This document shows, piece by piece, positions 40,849 to 62,566 of a stretch of DNA of 64,000 nt. The notes under the pieces were generated by a model. The model searched no databases. It worked only from the letters and a program-made list of their open reading frames with translations, and was not told the origin of the DNA. How positions within the stretch are numbered: the first letter of the stretch is position 1; each line of letters starts with the position of its first letter. The translations under genes were made by a program, and so were the position numbers. Source of the DNA: a virus. Location: positions 1-64,000 of the IMG/VR virus record IMGVR_UViG_3300028766_000004. The stretch is one strand, 5' to 3'.

Positions 40849-41043
40849 TTACTTCTTTGTCGTTACGGGAGTTGCCTTAACTGTGCTCTGTTGACCAGCT
40901 ATGATAGACGTATTCAGTGCGGTATGTGTATGAGCATTGAATTGGGATGTTAGGAGAGCGATATCAGTCGTCAACTGATTCACTTGTTTAATCAGCTCTG
41001 CCACCACTCCAGACCCACCCGAGTCGTCTAAAACTAATGCCAT
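40849..41043 (-). CDS. HTHT-motif small protein B (tandem paralogue)
   Basis: A 64-residue protein with GGAGGATTATT ribosome site. Residues 14-35 are a helical coiled-coil segment, followed by a FNAHTHTAL motif and a short Thr/Lys-rich tail. The adjacent gene upstream is similar in length, layout and key residues (QVNQL, HTHT, IAG), so they arose by duplication. HTHT motifs often mark tips or metal-binding turns of trimeric phage fibres. A trimeric decoration or neck whisker is a possible role, inferred only. Confidence 0.6.
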   Translation of the reverse strand: MALVLDDSGGSGVVAELIKQVNQLTTDIALLTSQFNAHTHTALNTSIIAGQQSTVKATPVTTKK

Positions 41044-41089: not shown

Positions 41090-41284
41090 TTAATACTTCG
41101 TATTAATGGTCTGCGCTGCGGGTGTAGTTTGGAAACCTGCGATTACAGCTGTACCGTTCGCTGTGTGTGTATGGGTATTGTGTGCGATTGCTAGTGCATT
41201 AATGTCTGCCTGCAACTGATTCACCTGTATTAAGAGCTGTGTAAGAATGGCGATTCCGCCATCATTATTTACTGTTACTGTCAT
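41090..41284 (-). CDS. HTHT-motif small protein A (tandem paralogue)
   Basis: A 64-residue paralogue of the gene that follows it. It has the same GGAGGATTATC site, a QVNQLQADINAL helix, an NTHTHTANG turn and an IAGFQT tail. Same strand and spacing of 46 bp indicate tandem duplication. Amino-acid identity is moderate (visibly about 40%), so the duplication is not recent. Function unknown. Confidence 0.6.
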   Translation of the reverse strand: MTVTVNNDGGIAILTQLLIQVNQLQADINALAIAHNTHTHTANGTAVIAGFQTTPAAQTINTKY

Positions 41285-42007: not shown

Positions 42008-42130
42008 TTGATACTCCCCACGAATAAATTCGGGGGATTCTAGCGTTCTTTCGAACGCCTTAACTGTTTCAACCAGCGTAGCTGAATTTCTCTAGACTTA
42101 CACACTGTCCGCAGTCGTTTAACGACTCCA
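41990..42130 (-). ncRNA. Predicted omega RNA (TnpB guide RNA) region
   Basis: TnpB proteins use an RNA from the right end of their element, whose 3' extension is the flanking sequence and serves as guide. Here the tnpB 3' end and right-end hairpin (42016-42036) fit the scaffold, and the guide would begin at 42007 with CAACAATAAAG read on the minus strand. The extent given is approximate; it is inferred from family knowledge. Confidence 0.35.
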
Positions 42131-43244
42131 TGTATCCCAAGGCGTCGAGTATCCTGATTCCTTCCGCTTTCAGATTTAGAGATGCGTTTCCATCCCGGCT
42201 GTGATGACTTCCACAAGAAGGACAGTTCCACTCTCTATCTGAAAGAGTTAGGTTATTGTTTTTGTATCCGCATTCGCTGCACAGTTTCGTGCTTGGAAAG
42301 AACCTATCAACCTGGACTGCGTGCCTGTTATTCCAAAGTGATTTATACTTCCATTGTCGAACTGTTTCTCCGAATGCGGCATCGAGCATCGACTTAGCCA
42401 GCTTGGTTTTCGCAAGACCTTTGATGCTTAAATCTTCAAGACACAGCGCTGGATACTTTTCAACCAGACCATGCGTTAGTTGATGAGCAAAATTACTCCG
42501 TAGATTTGAAATCCGTTCATAGACCTTTGCAACAGCGGCAACTGCTTTGGCACGGTTACGACTACCTTTAACGCGACGGCACACCTTTTGTTGAGCTTTC
42601 TTTAGCTTTTGAGCATGACGACGGTAGAACTTTGGAACTGAGACCTCGTCCCCGTCAGACAGCGTTAGATATGTATTCAATCCAAGATCGCCACCTTGCA
42701 CCTGCTCAGGTTTTACCTTTGGCAAACATTCTGTTAATTCAAACTCAGAAACTAATATAACAAACCAACGACCCGTTGCTGTGCGCTTAAATGTCGCTGA
42801 TTTTGTTTCACCGTCAATGATTCGTGATTGACGTATCTTTATCCAGCCGATCTTAGGAACATACACTTTACCATCTTTTACCACTACTCTCTGTGGTATA
42901 CGGAAGGTTTGTTTTGTACTCTTCTTGGTTTTGAATACAGGAAATCCGGCATTCATCTTTGGGTTGAAATGGTTATCGTATGCACGCTTCAAATTCTTTA
43001 GAACCTGCTGCAACGACTGTGAATCAAAATCGTACATCCACGGCCTAGACTCTTTGAATTTAGTGAGTTCCACGGATAATCGTGACTGAGATATGCTTTT
43101 CTTGTTTTCTTTGTAGAATGTCCGGCAGCAATCCAAAGCAAGGTTCCACACAAGCCTAGATGCCCCCGCTTGGCACAAAAGTTTCTGTGCTTCGTCAGAC
43201 GTTGGCTCCATGCGGAATTTGAACACCTTGCGTTGTTTAGACAT
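42069..43244 (-). CDS. tnpB: TnpB RNA-guided nuclease (OrfB)
   Basis: About 391 residues. RuvC residues are visible as GGDLGLN (Asp191), LCLEDLSIKG (Glu275) and HSRDGNASLNL (Asp356), numbered from the longer start at 43259. A zinc finger is in place between the last two (CSECG and CPSCG). Length agrees with active TnpB proteins (about 400 residues), and all three acidic residues are kept. TnpB cuts DNA next to the target tetranucleotide (TTAC here) with guide from its omega RNA, aiding retention of the element. The start at 43244 overlaps the tnpA stop by 8 bp. Confidence 0.93.
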   Translation of the reverse strand: MSKQRKVFKFRMEPTSDEAQKLLCQAGASRLVWNLALDCCRTFYKENKKSISQSRLSVELTKFKESRPWMYDFDSQSLQQVLKNLKRAYDNHFNPKMNAGFPVFKTKKSTKQTFRIPQRVVVKDGKVYVPKIGWIKIRQSRIIDGETKSATFKRTATGRWFVILVSEFELTECLPKVKPEQVQGGDLGLNTYLTLSDGDEVSVPKFYRRHAQKLKKAQQKVCRRVKGSRNRAKAVAAVAKVYERISNLRSNFAHQLTHGLVEKYPALCLEDLSIKGLAKTKLAKSMLDAAFGETVRQWKYKSLWNNRHAVQVDRFFPSTKLCSECGYKNNNLTLSDREWNCPSCGSHHSRDGNASLNLKAEGIRILDALGYMESLNDCGQCVSLEKFSYAG

Positions 43245-43638
43245 TTTTCTGATTTTCAACGTACTGTTTTATTACTTCCAGTGGAGACCCGCCAACTGTT
43301 GAAACAAAATAGCTATTTGTCCACAACGTCGGCAACTTTGATTTCAGCGTTCTAAACTCATTTCTCAGCGTGTGAGATGAAACACCCTTCATGTTCTTGA
43401 CAAGGCGGTGAATGCCAAACTGAGGATCAATTTCCACGAGTACGTGAACATGGTCTGGCATGATTTCTAGCGCAATTACTTCTGCCTTATACTTCTCTGC
43501 CACTTGCCTAATGACAGATTCGCACCGTGCTGCAATATCACCAATCAAAACACTGCGCCTATACTTCGGCGTCCATACCACATGGTACTTGCTCGAATAC
43601 ACCACATTTAAGTTCGATTTGTAGCCTTCTAGTGCCAT
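43237..43638 (-). CDS. tnpA: TnpA Y1 transposase (IS200/IS605)
   Basis: 133 residues, typical for the Y1-HUH transposases of this family. The HUH motif is MPDHVHVLVEI (His63 and His65) and the catalytic tyrosine is Tyr126 (VIKQYVENQK). It acts as a dimer on single-stranded DNA, cutting at the hairpin ends. All essential residues are present, so the element is probably mobile. It precedes tnpB on the same transcript. Confidence 0.93.
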   Translation of the reverse strand: MALEGYKSNLNVVYSSKYHVVWTPKYRRSVLIGDIAARCESVIRQVAEKYKAEVIALEIMPDHVHVLVEIDPQFGIHRLVKNMKGVSSHTLRNEFRTLKSKLPTLWTNSYFVSTVGGSPLEVIKQYVENQKNV

Positions 43639-44140: not shown

Positions 44141-45571
44141 TTACGAAATATCGCCAACATTGATGATACGAACCCATTTCCGAGGAGCATACATTACCAA
44201 AGTTCCATACAGCAATATCATCCAACGAATAGCCGGGCCGATAACAGCGAGGTCCATCTTCATAAGCGGTGCAAGCTGCTTGAAAGCGAGGACTTCGTTA
44301 TCCATTTGACCAAGGTAGCAAGTGCTAACCACAGTCATATAGAGGCCTGTATCGGTGTATGTCGTTGTTGCGGAGGCAGTAACAGAAGCAGCTGCAACCG
44401 AGAACAGGTAGTAGAACGAACCTGTAGACGACACATCACAAGCATAAACGTTGAAGTAATCGGGCACCAAACCGCTCATCGAAGCAGGGTTGGTAATGGT
44501 CAACAGTGAAGAGTTTCCAGCGGAAACGTCACCAGATGAAACCACCAAACCAGATGAAGCAGCAGTAGCTGCAGACTCACCAAAGCGGTTAACAGCGGTC
44601 GCCTTGTAGTAACGAGTCCCAGGATTCTTCCATGCGCCAATCTGTGCAGAGTTGTAAGCGGTGGAAGCAGGAGAGATAGAAGCAGGTGTTTGAGGAGCGT
44701 TAGCCGAAGTTGCTGCACTCGGTGCCAAACCAGTAGCCTTACGGTTCTTGGTAAGGAATACATCAGACAGAATGTCGATGTTACCGAACTGTGAAGCGAA
44801 CGTGTTGATCACGCTACCAGCAGCATATCCACCGGACGCTGTTGGGAGCAATGCACGCTCTTTCGGGAAGAAGGTCTTGGAGAAGTCGCTAGCCACCTTG
44901 TAGGGGGTGTAGAGACATGATGCACGACCAAACTGCTCGGCAATCAGCTCGCAAGCGTCTTCCAGAATACCTTCAGTTAACGACCCACCCTTGGCGTCGA
45001 TAATCATCGTAGGATCGATCTGTGCTTCCAGACCAGCCCACTCGATGCCTTCCTTTCCGCCCGACACATTGCTGTATCCAGCAGTCAGAGTGTTGTTGCC
45101 CCAGAACAGCGAACGCTCAATTTGCTGTAGAAGCCAAAGAATGCCGTTCTTGTTCTCCAGTGCAACCACATCACCGTGAGCGCTGCGAACCATCGTCATA
45201 ACATGGGAAACCACACGTGTGGTGCCCAAGAACTTGACAAGTGCAACCTTACGGCTGTAGTTGCTATCCTGTGTTTCAGGCATCACTGCCTCAGGAATGA
45301 AGGCGTTGCTGTTATCGCCATAGGCGGTAAGCTGGTTATATTCCTCAACGGTGTTGAATGCTGGCATCTTGGGGAGATTCTTCCACAGACGAATATTCTG
45401 TTCTGTGAACGATAGAACCTTTAATGAGCTTTCGAGCGATTCCACACGGAACGCTCCACCGCCTGCTTGGTCGGTAACCCCGTAGTTGTACCCAGCTGAC
45501 AAAGCCTTCTGCAAGTCGGGAACATCTCTTGATTCACCGTAACCGTTAATACCACGAAAGTCTAAAGCCAT
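44141..45571 (-). CDS. Major capsid protein (HK97 fold) with FN3-like insertion
   Basis: 476 residues. I use the ATG at 45571 since GGAGGATAAC precedes it. The N-terminal segment (residues 22-48: KAL..GY..GVTDQ.GG.A.RVESLE) is shared with the protease C-terminus. The core (VALVKFLGTTRVVSHVM; IERSLFWGNN; ELIAEQFGRASCLYTPYKVASDF; then the C-terminal VMYAPRKWVRIINV) fits phage HK97-type capsids. Between about residues 285 and 400 lies an FN3/Ig-like insertion (TRYYKATAVNRFGES; LTITNPASMSGLVPDYFNVYA) likely exposed on the capsid surface. The gene follows the scaffold-like protein and ends in a strong terminator. Confidence 0.9.
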   Translation of the reverse strand: MALDFRGINGYGESRDVPDLQKALSAGYNYGVTDQAGGGAFRVESLESSLKVLSFTEQNIRLWKNLPKMPAFNTVEEYNQLTAYGDNSNAFIPEAVMPETQDSNYSRKVALVKFLGTTRVVSHVMTMVRSAHGDVVALENKNGILWLLQQIERSLFWGNNTLTAGYSNVSGGKEGIEWAGLEAQIDPTMIIDAKGGSLTEGILEDACELIAEQFGRASCLYTPYKVASDFSKTFFPKERALLPTASGGYAAGSVINTFASQFGNIDILSDVFLTKNRKATGLAPSAATSANAPQTPASISPASTAYNSAQIGAWKNPGTRYYKATAVNRFGESAATAASSGLVVSSGDVSAGNSSLLTITNPASMSGLVPDYFNVYACDVSSTGSFYYLFSVAAASVTASATTTYTDTGLYMTVVSTCYLGQMDNEVLAFKQLAPLMKMDLAVIGPAIRWMILLYGTLVMYAPRKWVRIINVGDIS

Positions 45572-45597
45572 GTTATCCTCCAAAAAATCAGCAGTGA

Positions 45598-46500
45598 TTA
45601 AGCTACTGGCAATCCAACCAACTCACGAAGCTCGGGGCGAACAAAACCGGAAGCATCAGCTGAAAGTACATCAGCCACTGTTACGCTCTTGTTACCACTT
45701 TCCATGAGAGTTGTAAGCTTTGCAGCAATATCGCTCTTCTTAAGTTCTGTTCCCTCTTTACCACCGAAGCTCTTCTCAACAACGCTGACATCGGATTTAC
45801 GCTGCCCAGCAGGTGTCGTACCGAAAGATTCAACCTTTTCAGTCAAGCCCTTTAGCAAAATACCAACTTGCTGCATAGCCTTTGCAAGCGCCACATTGAA
45901 TTCGCCTTGACCAGCCTGACGTGCCAACGACTTCTCAACACGAGCTGACAAACCATCTGTTGATTCCGAAACTGCATACACAAAATCACGAAGATAGTCG
46001 GAAATGTCGATGGCCTTCGAAACAGCTTCTGAATTCTCGGCTAGCGTATCGGCAAATGATTTCTTTGTCTTCTTTTTCTTGCTAGCTGATTTGAACTCAG
46101 GCTCTCGGGCCTCTTCCTCTTCCTCTTCCTCTTCTGGACGTGACCTCCGACGAGGAGCAAACTCCTGCTCTTCCTCTTCTTCCTGTTCTGGAAGGGGGAA
46201 TCCCTTCTTGGCAACTTCCTCAACGCCCTTCTTGGTCTTGGGCTGCTCTTCTGTTTCGCCCTCGCCATGTTGGCCGTATTTCTTCTGCAGTTCCTTGGCG
46301 TCTTCAGCAACTTCTTTAGCCGTACGCTTGTCGGTATCGTTTTCCTTTGCAGGAGCTGGACGAACACCCTTAGAAACATTCTCGAGAACAGCTAAGCTCT
46401 TATCGAGACTCTCGAAGCTAAGACCAGCAGCCGACTTTGATGTGCAAGCTGAGCAAGCAGCGCCATTTGTTTGAGTACCGCATTCGCCACAAAATTTCAT
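45598..46500 (-). CDS. Scaffold-like head protein with zinc ribbon
   Basis: A 300-residue protein. The N-terminal CGECG...ACSAC pattern could bind zinc. The middle is a long, very acidic low-complexity stretch (EEEEEQEF; RPEEEEEEEEA) flanked by Lys-rich segments. The C-terminal third is helical (FVYAVSESTDGLSARVEKSLARQ; VALAKAMQQVGILLKGLTEKV), like scaffolding proteins. It sits between the protease and capsid genes, the standard place for scaffolds. It is likely removed or cleaved during maturation. Role inferred from order and composition. Confidence 0.6.
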   Translation of the reverse strand: MKFCGECGTQTNGAACSACTSKSAAGLSFESLDKSLAVLENVSKGVRPAPAKENDTDKRTAKEVAEDAKELQKKYGQHGEGETEEQPKTKKGVEEVAKKGFPLPEQEEEEEQEFAPRRRSRPEEEEEEEEAREPEFKSASKKKKTKKSFADTLAENSEAVSKAIDISDYLRDFVYAVSESTDGLSARVEKSLARQAGQGEFNVALAKAMQQVGILLKGLTEKVESFGTTPAGQRKSDVSVVEKSFGGKEGTELKKSDIAAKLTTLMESGNKSVTVADVLSADASGFVRPELRELVGLPVA

Positions 46501-46548
46501 ATTAGTTCTCCCACAGCTAAGGCTGTATTAGATTTTTTTTACTACGCT

Positions 46549-48762
46549 TTACTTCTTAACCTTTTGAGCTAAACCTGATATATCTCCGTCATTCTTCACC
46601 ATCAATAAGAGTATCCGGTCGGCTTGAGCCTCAGGGATACCACGATTAACGAGAAAGTCTAGTGCATCACGAAGCGTAACGTATGTTTGACCACCGTTAG
46701 CACGTGCTGTATCAAACTCAACCTTAGTAGTCTTCAGGTCGGGAGCAATCACCTTCCCATAAGACAAATCTTTTTGCTGACCTTCTAATGATTCCACCCT
46801 TAATGCTGAACCACCTGTTTGGTCAGTTACACCGAAAGCATATCCAGTAACCAAAGCCTTTTCGATACAGCTATCATCACAATATGAATGGCCGTCTTCT
46901 ACCATATACATATTTCCTTTGATGATGATTTCCTTACACACATCACAAGCTTCAGTACTATCAGCAGCACATATGAGCGCTTTCTTAATCAGCTTGTTTT
47001 TATCCAAAAACTTGTGATTGATACCGAATCCATCAAGATACTTCTTACATTTGTCTTTACCCTTTGCACCAGTCTTTGGATCATCAGCAAATATTCTTGA
47101 ACCAATCGTTTCCAACGTCCCCTTAGCATTAGGAAGTGCATGAAGAACAGCAAATGCGCCTGTGTCTCCATCGCCAGAAACAGATACTTGATGCTTCTTA
47201 TCCTTGTCTTCGTAGGTAACACTATGAAGTGGCATCTTCTTATCCCCAAGCTTTATTTCTCCACCGTGAGAATGAATTGTTGTCCACTTCGTACTTTTTT
47301 CAAACCATCCATTATCAATCGATGAAATAGACTTTGTTATGGGAGAAATTGGCATTTTTGGAGCTTTCAAAGAACTGTCTAGTGCTCCGACATGTGTTCC
47401 AGTCGTAACATCACCACTAGGATGAATATGAGTAAATCCAGTATGTGATATGTGTAACATGCCTTTCTCTGGAGATGCAAAACTGGTCACAGTTTTGTGA
47501 GTATTCATCCCTAAAGGTTTCATTCCATGTCCGTTCTTTATACCATTATGGATACCAGAATCTATTCCTTGGTTTACATGGCTGTAATTTTGTTTATTTT
47601 CACCATAATGACCAATCTTGAAATCGTTGACTCTGGGATCGTATGAAGATATCTTCGGTTCAATCTCAATACCCTTTTCTAAATCCGTATCAATCGATTT
47701 CTTAGCAGTAGTTGGTCTATGTACACCATTCACTATTGGTCCAATTTCTTTGTGGTTCTTGTCGGAGTCTGCCTCGGCGTGTGAGTGCATTGTCTTATTC
47801 TCTTCATGCCCTTGCTCATCGCCTTTCAGCGCTTTACCTTCTTCTATATCCGGAACGATTGCTTGGTCTTCTTTAGGAAGTTTGAATGTGCTTTTTTTAC
47901 CTTTAATCACAACATCGCCGTTTTGATTAACTTCGATTGTGAATAGTGGTTCTGATTCGACGCCTTTCTTAGCCAGCGGAACATCATCTAATTGCTTTTC
48001 CATATCCTGCTTCGGCTTCTTATCACTCAACGCTCTCTTGGTTTCGTCTAATGCATCCTTCTCTTCCACATCGATTTGATTAACCACAGGAGACTTTGTC
48101 GCCTCTTCTGTTCTTTCTAAAACATTGTCGGCTTTCTTCTCTTCACCTTCCGGCTTAGTATCTGTATCTGGTTTCTGCGTAGTCTTGGTTTGAGTTACGT
48201 CAGCAGCAACTCCTTTGTTAATAGCTTCTTCGTTTTCGCCAAACACAAGAACCTCATCATACTTCTGTGAAGCAAACGATTTTGCAATATCCAAGAACGT
48301 GTTCGGATTGATGGGTGATGCTGTGATGGCGATATCTTTAATCCAAGCCTTGGTGATGATTGTGTGGTCGCTGGCATCACGAGATAACACCTTACCCTCT
48401 ACAGAGAATCCCAATTTACGGGCATCTCCAGCTTTCTTTAATCCCTCAGCCAAATCCCAAATTCCATTCGCTCTCGGTGTATCAAGCAGGAATCCCTTCG
48501 TCCACAACCCTTTAGATGTGATACGTGCTTCTGTTGGGATACCGACTTTACCTGACGTTTCTTTTGCATGATCATCATTGAAGTATCCGCGCTTCAAGAA
48601 ATAGCTTAATTCCAAACCATCCTGTTTAATCTTCTCGCCTTGTAAGTCTTTGTGGTCTGTACTAGCAATACCTTCGATCCAGCGCTTGCCATCTTCGCCT
48701 TTAGCTAGATTAGCTTCGTACCAGAATTCGAATGTACCGTCTTGTTTGATCGCGTTCGCCAT
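46549..48762 (-). CDS. Prohead protease (S78-type) with long C-terminal extension
   Basis: 737 residues. The first about 180 residues are an HK97-type prohead protease: His65 in FNDDHAK, Ser120 in KLGFSVEGKV, and the family pattern IKDIAITASPINP at 141-153. The usual length is about 200 residues. The other 550 residues have a charged linker, His-rich segments, a LIM-like Cys cluster (CDVCKEI...YCDDSC, about 604-630) and, at 635-661, a copy of the capsid N-terminal motif. The end resembles small helical domains (RDALDFLVNRGIPEAQADRILLLM). The start ATG at 48762 follows GAGGATATA; a frame from 48795 is longer. It cleaves scaffold and capsid N-termini in maturation. Confidence 0.88.
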   Translation of the reverse strand: MANAIKQDGTFEFWYEANLAKGEDGKRWIEGIASTDHKDLQGEKIKQDGLELSYFLKRGYFNDDHAKETSGKVGIPTEARITSKGLWTKGFLLDTPRANGIWDLAEGLKKAGDARKLGFSVEGKVLSRDASDHTIITKAWIKDIAITASPINPNTFLDIAKSFASQKYDEVLVFGENEEAINKGVAADVTQTKTTQKPDTDTKPEGEEKKADNVLERTEEATKSPVVNQIDVEEKDALDETKRALSDKKPKQDMEKQLDDVPLAKKGVESEPLFTIEVNQNGDVVIKGKKSTFKLPKEDQAIVPDIEEGKALKGDEQGHEENKTMHSHAEADSDKNHKEIGPIVNGVHRPTTAKKSIDTDLEKGIEIEPKISSYDPRVNDFKIGHYGENKQNYSHVNQGIDSGIHNGIKNGHGMKPLGMNTHKTVTSFASPEKGMLHISHTGFTHIHPSGDVTTGTHVGALDSSLKAPKMPISPITKSISSIDNGWFEKSTKWTTIHSHGGEIKLGDKKMPLHSVTYEDKDKKHQVSVSGDGDTGAFAVLHALPNAKGTLETIGSRIFADDPKTGAKGKDKCKKYLDGFGINHKFLDKNKLIKKALICAADSTEACDVCKEIIIKGNMYMVEDGHSYCDDSCIEKALVTGYAFGVTDQTGGSALRVESLEGQQKDLSYGKVIAPDLKTTKVEFDTARANGGQTYVTLRDALDFLVNRGIPEAQADRILLLMVKNDGDISGLAQKVKK

Positions 48763-59693: not shown

Positions 59694-59870
59694 TTACTTT
59701 CTAATAGACACACGATATTCATGTCCAAATTTGGACATATCAGTCGCCTGTTGTCTACATATCGGAGAACAAAACCTCTCATCCTTATTCATCTCTCTTT
59801 TTTTACCACATATATTGCATGTCCTAACTACTAATTTCTTTTCATACAAGTTCTTTATCTTCACACTCAT
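59694..59870 (-). CDS. 58-residue zinc-finger protein
   Basis: A short gene whose ATG overlaps the portal stop (ATGA at 59870-59867). The protein is basic and carries CNICGKK..., then FCSPICR, a CxxC-x12-CxxxC zinc-finger pattern. Length of 58 residues, strong overlap and the clear Cys pattern support it. Its position just after the portal gene suggests a small DNA-binding or assembly role, but no function is assigned. Confidence 0.75.
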   Translation of the reverse strand: MSVKIKNLYEKKLVVRTCNICGKKREMNKDERFCSPICRQQATDMSKFGHEYRVSIRK

Positions 59871-62566
59871 TTTGCTTTTCCTTGCCTAGCTGGTGGTTGC
59901 CCTTCTGGAGCCTTACCAACTTGGAGGCTTGGATGAGACGAAGCTCCACCTTGTACAAACTCGTTCGGGTCTCCGGGGTTATTGGGGTCTGGCTGTCCTT
60001 GTTCCCCACCTTGTCCAGCTTGAGCTTCCATTTGTTGGGCTTGTTGTTGCTGCGCTTGTTGCTGTAGTTTGTAGTTAACCACAACAGGGTTAAGTATTAG
60101 GTTCCCAATTTCTTCGTCATCGTACGGTTCTAATCCAGCCTCCTCACGAGTCTCATCTAAAGTCTTATAAGCTTGTACTTCAGACGCTCTGATATTAACC
60201 ATCTCCTGCTCATCTTTCATATCAATGCCAGTGAATTCAAAATACAAATTTCTGTCAATTTGATGGAGGATGTGGTAATTCATCTGTTCTTCTATGAAGT
60301 TGAGAAGGTTTCGTAATCCTTTATCCCTAGAATGTTTTAATTTCGCCTCAGGAGATGTTTCAAACAATGGAGCAGACTCAGATGCACCGCGATAATCAAA
60401 GTTGATTTCGGCTGGATCAATCAAATAAACAGCTGTAACCATCTTTACGAGGTATTCAATCCAAGAATTGTACTCCATATCCCTATTATTGGAATGTAGG
60501 TTGATAAACTCGATGCCATCCTTGCTTGTCAAAACAGGGATTTTATGTGCGTTCGTAACATTTGAAGCGAGAGCGTGCCACTGTCTACGAAAAGATTCAA
60601 GCATCTCTTGTGGAACATTGGCACCTTTTATGTTTAAGAGTCCGTTAATCATACTTCCATTCGAGAAGAACCTGCGATTATATTCTTGGGCAAATAGGAT
60701 GCTCGTAACCATATTGATAAGCATCTCTAGTTCACTATATCCATAACCATTCAACTTGATGGAGTTGCGAACATTTCTAATGCAGAACGCCAATTCGCGG
60801 TACGTATAGGTATGACGAACAACATTGTTGTAAATCTGCACGTATTTGATGAGGTCTCTACCATCATCCAAACCTTCCACGCTCTGCATACGAGGTTGAG
60901 CTACGCGAATTGTAGATGCGTCTACAGCCCAGAACTCACACGGTTTTCCATTCTTGGCAGGGACGATTTCAAAACAGTTATGGCTGATACATCCATTAGC
61001 TAAATAACTATGAGTTTTCTCAACTTCAAAGTTGTAAACGTCCAAATCTTCAACTTGCGAACATTTAACTTCATTTACTCGAATATAGAAATATTCGTCG
61101 TCTACCAAATAGGCCGAGCGTTCTTTGGTTGGTTCGGCAACTTCTAATCCGTTTTCTCTAGCCAATTCTCTATATTCTTTACCACTAATATTTCCTCTGT
61201 ACTGGTCTAAACACGGAACACCATATCTATTAACCTTCAGTTCAGATTCTGCTAAATATATTCCCTCGGCGCTAAGTAGATGACGTAAGCCAACAAACAA
61301 TTGTCTGGATGTTGTGTTTATCTTAGCTTTTGTTTTATATATCGTACCATCCCCGCTTAAATAGCCGCCAATAAAAGCCCTTCTAACTTTTCTAGAAGAC
61401 AGCAGTATGGATAAAGGAACCATCTTGTTTTCTGAACCTTTTCCGCATAAGTCTTCTAACCAATCTCCAAAACCGCTACCGTTAGAATTAATAAATACGG
61501 TTATGGCGTTTCTTCCTTCAACTGGATCGACGTGAGATTTTAATCCTATTTTTTCAGCAAATTTTAGAGTAAAATCAGCCAATTCTGTTTCATCAGAATG
61601 AAAAGTCAACCTCACACTTCCATTTTGTTGATTCCCTTCCGCCACGTAGAGACCTAAGAATCTCCCAAATTCACTATCAATATGATGAGTTTTATCTCCA
61701 AATACAGCTTCAACATCTGATTCAGGCAGTTTTATGCGGGGGTAGGTTAAATACATTCCTGAAGAAATATTCTTAGCCTCTAACCATTCTGAGACGAATG
61801 GCTTACGACGAGTTCCAAGATAAGCCCACTTATCTTTAAGAACAAGAAGAGGGTGACCTTCTGTAGCCGTAATCTTCTGACCTCTAGATTTTATAGAGTA
61901 AAGATTCCCAGAATATTTGCGAGAATAAATTTGTTCTACCTTAGCTAATTCTCCATTATGGGAAAAAACTTGATGGCCGACCTTAACGTCTTGGATGTTT
62001 ATAAACGCTCCAAACATTTCAATCCTAGTATTAGCCGGATGACATGCTTGGTCGTAAATAAGTGAATCACGAACAAAACGCTTCAAAAACTCAGCGAAAT
62101 TGGGACGTCTTTCGCCAGAACGATATCTATCTGTATAACCAGTTTGGTAAAAAATATCTTCTAGCAGATCGAGACGTCCTCTTTCTTCCTTGGTTGGTTT
62201 CCTGTTAGCATCTTTAAAACGAATTTGGAATCCGAGTGAATTCTTTTTCCATCTCGCAGGTTGAGCGAAGCTACAAATTTGCGCTATACGAGTATTTATT
62301 ATGGCGTTAACCTGCTCTGTCTTTTCCGACATAGCAGCCAAAACATCATACGTTAAGCTGGAATATCTTTCTTTATACTGGGTTTGACCAATCAAAGACA
62401 AAGGATCGAACAACATAGAACGAGGAGATATTGCACTCGGCGCGAGACCACCCAATTCGCTAGAACGCTGAGTTAGCTCGGCATTCACTTTTTCAGTAAC
62501 CTGTTGGTCGAGAGACTTCCCATTCAGTCCTTGTCTCCAACCGGCGATAGCTTCACGAAATCCCAT
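59867..62566 (-). CDS. Portal protein precursor with intein
   Basis: 899 residues, with host-protein residues 1-174 and 531-899 giving a 543-residue mature portal. The N-extein has a clear portal start (LTYDVLAAMSEKTEQVNAII; RPNFAEFLKRFVRDSLIYDQA) and the C-extein holds CFEIVPAKNGKP, AVDASTIRVAQP and DPAEINFDYRGASESAPLFE, as in HK97/SPP1-like portals. The intein interrupts a conserved region just after YDQA. The start overlaps the upstream stop as TAATG. The portal is the dodecameric DNA entry pore at the capsid vertex. Splicing is required to make it. Confidence 0.92.
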   Translation of the reverse strand: MGFREAIAGWRQGLNGKSLDQQVTEKVNAELTQRSSELGGLAPSAISPRSMLFDPLSLIGQTQYKERYSSLTYDVLAAMSEKTEQVNAIINTRIAQICSFAQPARWKKNSLGFQIRFKDANRKPTKEERGRLDLLEDIFYQTGYTDRYRSGERRPNFAEFLKRFVRDSLIYDQACHPANTRIEMFGAFINIQDVKVGHQVFSHNGELAKVEQIYSRKYSGNLYSIKSRGQKITATEGHPLLVLKDKWAYLGTRRKPFVSEWLEAKNISSGMYLTYPRIKLPESDVEAVFGDKTHHIDSEFGRFLGLYVAEGNQQNGSVRLTFHSDETELADFTLKFAEKIGLKSHVDPVEGRNAITVFINSNGSGFGDWLEDLCGKGSENKMVPLSILLSSRKVRRAFIGGYLSGDGTIYKTKAKINTTSRQLFVGLRHLLSAEGIYLAESELKVNRYGVPCLDQYRGNISGKEYRELARENGLEVAEPTKERSAYLVDDEYFYIRVNEVKCSQVEDLDVYNFEVEKTHSYLANGCISHNCFEIVPAKNGKPCEFWAVDASTIRVAQPRMQSVEGLDDGRDLIKYVQIYNNVVRHTYTYRELAFCIRNVRNSIKLNGYGYSELEMLINMVTSILFAQEYNRRFFSNGSMINGLLNIKGANVPQEMLESFRRQWHALASNVTNAHKIPVLTSKDGIEFINLHSNNRDMEYNSWIEYLVKMVTAVYLIDPAEINFDYRGASESAPLFETSPEAKLKHSRDKGLRNLLNFIEEQMNYHILHQIDRNLYFEFTGIDMKDEQEMVNIRASEVQAYKTLDETREEAGLEPYDDEEIGNLILNPVVVNYKLQQQAQQQQAQQMEAQAGQGGEQGQPDPNNPGDPNEFVQGGASSHPSLQVGKAPEGQPPARQGKAK
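60977..62044 (-). other. Intein with LAGLIDADG endonuclease in portal gene
   Basis: 356 residues (portal residues 175-530). Block A begins with Cys175. Block B is TATEGH (Thr235, His238). LAGLIDADG motifs are FLGLYVAEG (303-311) and FIGGYLSGDG (398-407), one helix each, with the expected spacing. Block F/G ends VYNFEVEKTHSYLANG...ISHN before Cys531 of the C-extein. All splicing residues (Cys1, TxxH, penultimate His, terminal Asn, +1 Cys) are present. It appears both splicing-competent and carrying an intact endonuclease. Confidence 0.95.

What the first reader, a model, noticed from the sequence alone, without database searches (positions are those of the whole stretch)
45428..46860. Capsid N-terminal motif repeated near the C-terminus of the prohead protease
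Capsid residues 22-48 (45428-45508) and protease residues 635-661 (46780-46860) share 19 of 27 positions (KAL, GY, GVTDQ, GG, A, RVESLE), while the DNA has diverged, suggesting selection on the protein. Possible meanings: a shared cleavage site, a capsid-binding tag that carries the protease into the prohead, or capsid-like residues for packaging of the protease extension.
Basis: seen in the sequence. Interest (0 to 1): 0.7.

Follow-up and report, generated by a model that had tools for sequence, protein, structure and literature searches.

The report
Capsid-arm mimic inside head protease
In this virus of bacteria and hundreds of its relatives, the enzyme that trims the virus shell carries a copy of the shell protein's own front end, and in each virus the two copies have changed in step, which suggests that the enzyme uses the shell's own binding arm to get into place and is then cut free.

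Summary
In detail: capsid residues 22-48 and protease residues 635-661 share 19 of 27 residues, and the alignment extends over 36 residues, far above shuffled controls. The feature is not peculiar to this window. Nearly every Herelleviridae-type relative examined has a capsid N-arm copy (full or shortened) in its prohead protease, between the catalytic domain and a helical tail. Whole-record searches of Herelleviridae found exactly two places: capsid and protease.

The shared block starts at a lysine; structures of phages 812 and SPO1 place the mature capsid N-terminus right after it. The likeness lies downstream (+1 to about +29), not upstream. Each protease copy matches its own capsid better than other phages' capsids and, beyond ~30% capsid divergence, better than other proteases. 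Codons show no trace of gene conversion.

Best reading: a capsid N-arm mimic with the shared K|A/S maturation site, which binds the N-arm's partner (scaffold or neighbouring capsid subunits), tethers the protease in the procapsid and releases the catalytic domain on cleavage. Docking and self-cleavage are inferred. No earlier description was found in the open-access library searched.

The parts
44141..45571 (-). Major capsid protein gene (476 aa, ATG at 45571)
   Evidence: PHROG 752 major head protein E 6.4e-100; Pfam SU10_MCP E 2.5e-9; model matches the SPO1 capsid 9vel
45506..45571 (-). Predicted capsid propeptide, residues 1-22, removed by cleavage K22|A23
   Evidence: Mature phage 812 chain 9row starts at the equivalent residue; SPO1 9vel_B has 445 modelled residues, the precursor's 468 minus 23. 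Cleavage in this phage is inferred
45407..45505 (-). Capsid N-arm segment shared with the protease, residues 23-55
   Evidence: Local alignment; HMM hit E 3.8e-19
45598..46500 (-). Head scaffolding protein (300 aa) between protease and capsid genes; holds K-S/K-A sites
   Evidence: PHROG 15087 head scaffolding protein E 1.5e-8; KS sites listed
46549..48762 (-). Prohead (head maturation) protease gene (737 aa, ATG at 48762)
   Evidence: PHROG 1028 head maturation protease E 3.2e-52
48277..48762 (-). Catalytic domain, residues 1-162, with invariant H65 and S120 and the domain-ending K161-S162
   Evidence: Alignment A2; the equivalent domain of a relative folds like T4 gp21 and herpesvirus proteases
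46861..48276 (-). Window-specific extension of the linker, residues 163-634 (472 aa), with K-S sites and a Cys-rich stretch just before the block
   Evidence: At most 76 residues lie at this place in relatives with a detectable copy; KS/KA sites listed
46759..46860 (-). Capsid N-arm mimic in the protease, residues 635-668, beginning with K635|A636
   Evidence: Local alignment; HMM hit E 4.8e-19
46552..46758 (-). C-terminal tail of the protease, residues 669-737, predicted helical in relatives
   Evidence: AF2 model of the homologous L088 protease; PHROG 1028 covers this tail in L088

Best explanation
The protease is a T4-gp21/herpesvirus-type catalytic domain followed by a flexible K-S-containing linker, a mimic of the mature capsid protein's N-terminal arm, and a small helical tail. 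In the procapsid the mimic occupies the kind of site that the capsid N-arm occupies (on the scaffold or on a neighbouring capsid subunit) and so holds a minority of protease molecules inside the shell. On activation the protease cuts after lysine (K|A/S) in scaffold, capsid and itself. That leaves capsid subunits with a free N-arm, a freed catalytic domain, and a ~100-residue tail piece whose new N-terminus looks like a mature capsid N-terminus. Shown here: homology, lineage-wide conservation, position downstream of the lysine, change in step with the own capsid, no gene conversion. Supported indirectly: cleavage of the capsid after the lysine. Inferred: self-cleavage of the protease, and docking at the N-arm's site.
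For: Block present in nearly all related proteases, full or shortened, and in 570 public phage records; exactly two places per genome in 12 of 14 named phages and in the window record. Own capsid-protease pairs 0.48 identical against 0.36 for cross pairs, 0 of 20,000 permutations; holds for 8 phages with capsids more than 50% diverged, p = 6e-5, and for 39 phages, z = 10.1. The excess is confined to +1..+29 after the lysine and absent at -1, -2 and +34..+36. Mature phage 812 capsid starts at +1; SPO1 9vel_B modelled length equals the precursor minus 23. KS 3.0x enriched in scaffolds, 3.3x in protease linkers, 0.53x in capsid bodies. No excess of shared codons. Block 49% conserved among proteases against 21% for the linker before it. 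It is disordered in both AF2 monomer models, as expected of an arm that binds another subunit. In other phages the scaffold contacts an MCP N-arm helix in procapsids (PMC12749128).
Against: No direct evidence of self-cleavage or of binding. The co-change would also arise if both copies fit one site on the protease itself. In one clade the protease copy is shortened to its two ends while the capsid arm stays full length. Phages with homologous capsids (Bacteroides DAC16, Chryseobacterium MA9V-3, contig L006) do without the copy. Virion mass spectrometry is ambiguous: protease detected in CKA15 (4 peptides, 29.5% coverage), none reported for ISP, and traces of protease are also found in P1 virions.
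Confidence: 0.52

Rival explanations
1. The block is a substrate-docking element. The protease has an extended groove or exosite that recognises ~30 residues downstream of the scissile lysine, and the copy in the protease is its own pseudosubstrate, used for autoinhibition or for timed self-cleavage.
For: Starts exactly at the maturation lysine; both copies would have to fit the same enzyme and so would change together; the shortened copies keep the K-A-L end; a comparable protease, SPN3US gp245, removes its own C-terminal propeptide (PMC10052503).
Against: Scaffolds hold many KS sites with no such block; no likeness on the upstream side, where T4- and phiKZ-type prohead proteases read their substrates (specificity of those proteases from general knowledge); recognition of 29 downstream residues would be unusual; the AF2 model does not dock the block in the catalytic domain, though at low confidence.
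Confidence: 0.27
2. The released C-terminal piece is itself a minor shell component: after self-cleavage it stays in the mature head, seated by its capsid-like N-terminus, and has a structural role of its own.
For: The new N-terminus would mimic the mature capsid; a conserved helical tail follows; protease peptides in CKA15 virions cover 29.5%.
Against: No chain matching the SPO1 or Twort protease outside the capsid arm is in the PDB; ISP virion list has no entry between portal Gp8 and capsid Gp11; the CKA15 peptides are not mapped to the tail in the text read.
Confidence: 0.12
3. The copy is kept similar by recurrent gene conversion or repeated duplication between neighbouring genes, without a function of its own.
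For: The genes are close neighbours, and a tree in which the protease copies form one clade is rejected (AU p = 0.0125).
Against: Identical residues show no excess of identical codons (z = -1.8); DNA identity is only 68% in the window; the block is much more conserved than the linker before it, which a relic would not be.
Confidence: 0.04
4. Chance or low-complexity resemblance between two unrelated segments.
For: The segment is short, and single-genome likenesses of this length can mislead.
Against: Scores far above shuffles in the window and in SPO1, Twort, P100, A9, LysYB1 and Lpa804, with T4 and three sister phages at chance; present at the same place across the family.
Confidence: 0.005

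Closest known systems
Herelleviridae head maturation proteases (PHROG 1028; SPO1 gp3.2, P100 gp15, Twort ORF040)
   Same: Same catalytic domain, gene order portal-protease-scaffold-capsid, capsid-like block and tail.
   Different: The window protease has about 470 extra residues, partly Cys-rich, between domain and block. I found no publication that describes the block in any member.
HK97 gp4 maturation protease
   Same: Protease taken into the prohead in few copies (~60 in HK97) and acting on the capsid N-terminal region (PMC12749128).
   Different: HK97's scaffold is fused to the capsid protein; no capsid-arm copy in its protease is known to me. HK97 gp4 was not compared here, and the paper on its encapsidation (Duda 2013) is not held.
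T4 gp21 and SPN3US gp245 prohead proteases
   Same: Fold (gp21 is the best PDB match); SPN3US gp245 removes its own C-terminal propeptide (PMC10052503).
   Different: T4 gp21 shows no likeness to gp23 or gp24 above chance; their sites are read upstream of a glutamate (general knowledge), not after lysine.
T4 internal-protein capsid-targeting sequence
   Same: A short shared peptide that brings proteins into the prohead next to a protease site (T4 packaging signal mentioned in PMC9024508; details from general knowledge).
   Different: The T4 signal is N-terminal, upstream of the cut, removed, and not a copy of the capsid. Here the block is downstream of the cut and copies the capsid.

Membership tests
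Herelleviridae-type head maturation protease (PHROG 1028) | Homologous catalytic domain | tested here: met
   PHROG 1028 E 3.2e-52 for the window protease
Herelleviridae-type head maturation protease (PHROG 1028) | Conserved His and Ser of the T4-gp21/herpesvirus protease fold | tested here: met
   H65 and S120 invariant in A2 and in A6 (H62, S117); fold match to T4 gp21 for the relative L088. Catalysis itself not tested
Herelleviridae-type head maturation protease (PHROG 1028) | Gene order portal, protease, scaffold, capsid | tested here: met
   Scaffold and capsid follow; portal ORF upstream but about 11 kb away, with several ORFs between; adjacent in SPO1
Herelleviridae-type head maturation protease (PHROG 1028) | Capsid-like block followed by a C-terminal tail | tested here: met
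Pfam Peptidase_S78 (PF04586) | Score above the curated cut-off | tested here: inconclusive
   No Pfam hit for the window protease; 16 of 21 relatives match at E <= 0.1, L088 just above cut-off
Major capsid protein of the SPO1/812 type (HK97 fold) | Full-length homology and fold | tested here: met
   PHROG 752 E 6.4e-100; 9vel, 5lii and 9row by sequence; 9vel by fold
Major capsid protein of the SPO1/812 type (HK97 fold) | N-terminal maturation cut after the motif lysine | not testable with these tools
   Conserved K22; cut seen only indirectly in phages 812 and SPO1
T4-type capsid-targeting sequence | N-terminal signal upstream of the cut, removed on maturation | tested here: not met
   The block is C-terminal in the protease and lies downstream of the lysine
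Self-cleaving prohead protease with C-terminal propeptide (as SPN3US gp245) | Protease cuts off its own C-terminal piece | not testable with these tools
   Sites are present (two invariant lysines in A6), but there are no protein data on this protease

The most novel reading that the evidence does not exclude
A previously undescribed way of taking the maturation protease into a phage head: the protease displays a mimic of the capsid N-arm, kept matched to the phage's own capsid, so that it is assembled as if it were a capsid arm and is then detached by the same cut that matures the capsid.
Probability: 0.42. Interest if true: 0.76.

Novelty: new variant of a known kind. Interest (0 to 1): 0.63.

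Why it matters
How tailed phages take in their maturation protease, and how they time its release, is poorly understood. Here a short, conserved, co-changing segment names a candidate contact in a large family that includes SPO1, the A511-like phage P100 and the phage K group used in therapy and food safety. Solved SPO1 and 812 capsids (9vel, 9row) make it directly testable. It also predicts the K|A/S maturation site and the mature N-termini of capsid and protease across the lineage.

Tried and rejected
Third copy in the scaffold (CTSKSAAGLSFESLDKSLAVLEN): best non-protease HMM hit, but capsid against scaffold scores at chance; rejected. Gene conversion: codon test negative. Shared amino-acid composition as the cause of own-pair likeness: rejected because the flanking positions show no excess. 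The long extension as the reason for the block: rejected, because relatives without it have the block. Capsid alignment A1 was too diverse for a collection scan. MAFFT misaligned the long window protease, so the block was placed by local alignment and HMM instead. The phage K tryptic peptide (K)SFQTGYG says nothing about maturation because trypsin also cuts there. The Duda 2013 HK97 protease paper is not held.

Full report
OBSERVATION. The optimal local alignment runs over 36 residues (capsid 20-55, protease 633-668) with score 109, against a shuffled mean of 39. The DNA is 55/81 identical, and ten of the 19 shared residues use different codons. PHROG profiles already cross-match: the head maturation protease family PHROG 1028 matches capsid 21-59 (E 1e-4), and the capsid family PHROG 752 matches protease 629-670 (E 0.0034).

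DISTRIBUTION. The window is part of an 89-kb virus record with SPO1-like head genes. Its capsid is 45% identical to that of Exiguobacterium phage vB_EalM-132 and about 43% to those of the SPO1 group. The proteases of SPO1, Exiguobacterium phage 132, P100, Twort and Lpa804 have the same block after the catalytic domain, followed by roughly 60-70 residues of tail. Together with 80 IMG/VR loci and further named phages, 103 of 104 sequences searched had both genes (this count includes duplicates). A capsid-arm HMM hits 62 of 103 proteases at E < 0.01. Most of the rest carry a shortened form, K-A-L..GG..(V/I)P-E-S-L-E: a pattern for the two ends is present in 68 of 77 non-redundant proteases against 4.4 expected in shuffled tails (the pattern was written after seeing the sequences). 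In whole-record searches 12 of 14 named phage records, and the window record, hold exactly two places, capsid and protease. The two exceptions are Bacteroides phage DAC16 (capsid only) and Chryseobacterium phage MA9V-3 (none). The Twort protease tail as query finds 1,098 places in 570 phage records. DAC16, MA9V-3 and a gut phage contig (L006), which have homologous capsids, show capsid/protease scores at chance, and so does T4 gp21 against gp23 and gp24.

THE BLOCK STARTS AT A MATURATION SITE. The phage 812 capsid chain deposited as 9row/9rox/9roz begins at S25, the residue after the motif lysine. In SPO1 the precursor has 468 residues and chain 9vel_B has 445 modelled residues, exactly the precursor minus the 23 residues up to the motif lysine; this second point is my inference from lengths. 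KS dipeptides are 3.0 times more frequent than expected in 71 scaffolds and 3.3 times in protease regions after the domain, but 0.53 times in capsid bodies. That is what a K|S-cutting protease that acts on scaffold and linkers, and not on the mature shell, should leave. In 21 proteases both the domain-ending K-S and the motif lysine are invariant. In Twort- and P100-type proteases the two lysines are one and the same.

THE TWO COPIES CHANGE TOGETHER. Brochothrix A9 is the clearest case: KSMTTGYNHGGTDQFNGQALRRQSLAND in the capsid, KSMTTGYEHGGTDQTDGSALRRQSLATK in the protease. Others are LysYB1 (YATSPETQVNGGA / YATTPETQVDGGA), contig L018 (ALRVQSL / ALRTQDL), contig L083 (RPV in both) and PG-2021_15 (RREAL in both). 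In 35 non-redundant phages own-pair identity is 0.480 and cross-pair identity 0.362; none of 20,000 permutations reached the observed mean score. In eight phages whose capsids differ by more than half, own is 0.566, cross 0.394 and orthologous protease segments 0.340, and 7 of 8 proteases match their own capsid best (p = 6e-5). The result holds after adding genomes (39 phages, z = 10.1; 5 phages over 55% diverged, p = 0.008). Under one ancient duplication with independent evolution, own and cross pairs should be equally distant, so this is co-change. A tree of the segments rejects the protease copies as one clade (AU p = 0.0125) and joins the A9 pair at 99/99, although 39 columns give little resolution. 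Identical residues do not share codons beyond expectation (248 against 269.7), so the co-change is at protein level.

WHERE THE SIGNAL LIES. Per position, the own-minus-cross excess is nil upstream (-0.07 at -1, +0.04 at -2), mostly positive from +1 to +29, and nil at +34 to +36. Position +16 (G or A) agrees in all 18 phages compared, and +22 (E or Q) in 89%. The shared part is therefore what stays on the downstream product, that is the N-arm of the mature capsid. Among proteases the block is 49% identical on average, against 21% for the linker before it.

STRUCTURE. AF2 of a short homologous protease (L088) gives a catalytic domain with pLDDT mostly 74-90, a low-confidence stretch 144-197 that includes most of the block, and a helical tail. 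Its best PDB match is T4 gp21, then herpesvirus proteases. The capsid model matches SPO1 9vel, and its residues 22-54 are low-confidence coil. Both fit an arm that takes shape only when bound to another subunit; they do not prove it.

MECHANISM. I favour a capsid N-arm mimic that docks the protease where capsid arms dock and is detached by the same cut. Work on other phages reports scaffold contacting an MCP N-arm helix in procapsids, and ~60 protease copies per HK97 prohead (PMC12749128). The main rival is an extended substrate-docking motif with pseudosubstrate function; co-change alone cannot separate the two. Against the rival: many scaffold KS sites lack the block, and there is no likeness upstream of the lysine. 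Virion mass spectrometry is ambiguous (CKA15 detects the protease; none is reported for ISP; P1 virions also hold traces of protease).

THE WINDOW'S OWN PECULIARITY. Between the catalytic domain and the block this protease has about 470 extra residues with several KS sites and a Cys-rich stretch (CDVCKEIIIKGNMYMVEDGHSYCDDSC) directly before the block. In relatives with a detectable copy at most 76 residues lie there. Its function is unknown; if both lysines are cut it would be excised.

NOVELTY. Ten full-text searches of the open-access library found no report of the capsid-like block. Subscription papers are not covered, so priority is not certain. I rate it a new feature of a known kind of protein.

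Noticed in passing
window 59867-62566 (-): The portal protein ORF (899 aa) holds an intein: intein C-terminal splicing region at residues 509-531 (NGCISHN|C), a weak N-terminal splicing match at 198-242, and portal homology resuming at about residue 532.
   Followed up: partly
window 42069-43638 (-): ORFs that look like an IS200/IS605-type transposase (133 aa) and a TnpB-like protein (396 aa) lie just downstream of the capsid gene, inside the structural gene cluster (identified by eye; no family search completed).
   Followed up: no
window 46861-48276 (-): Roughly 470-residue extension of the protease linker, rich in charged residues and KS sites, ending in a Cys-rich zinc-finger-like stretch. 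One clade of relatives (L015, L036, L039, L040, L043, L056, L081, L090) has shorter Cys-rich linkers at the same place.
   Followed up: partly
window 40849-41043 and 41090-41284 (-): Two adjacent 64-aa ORFs resemble each other (MALVLDDSGGSGVVAELIKQVNQL.. / MTVTVNNDGGIAILTQLLIQVNQL..) and look like a tandem duplication of a small gene.
   Followed up: no
window 45598-46500 (-), scaffold residues 19-41: CTSKSAAGLSFESLDKSLAVLEN faintly resembles a shortened block (HMM score 9.8), but the pairwise score is at chance.
   Followed up: yes
L101 (Lactobacillus phage LfeInf) 4914-7372: Gene order is changed: the capsid gene precedes the protease and scaffold genes, yet the protease still carries the block.
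   Followed up: no
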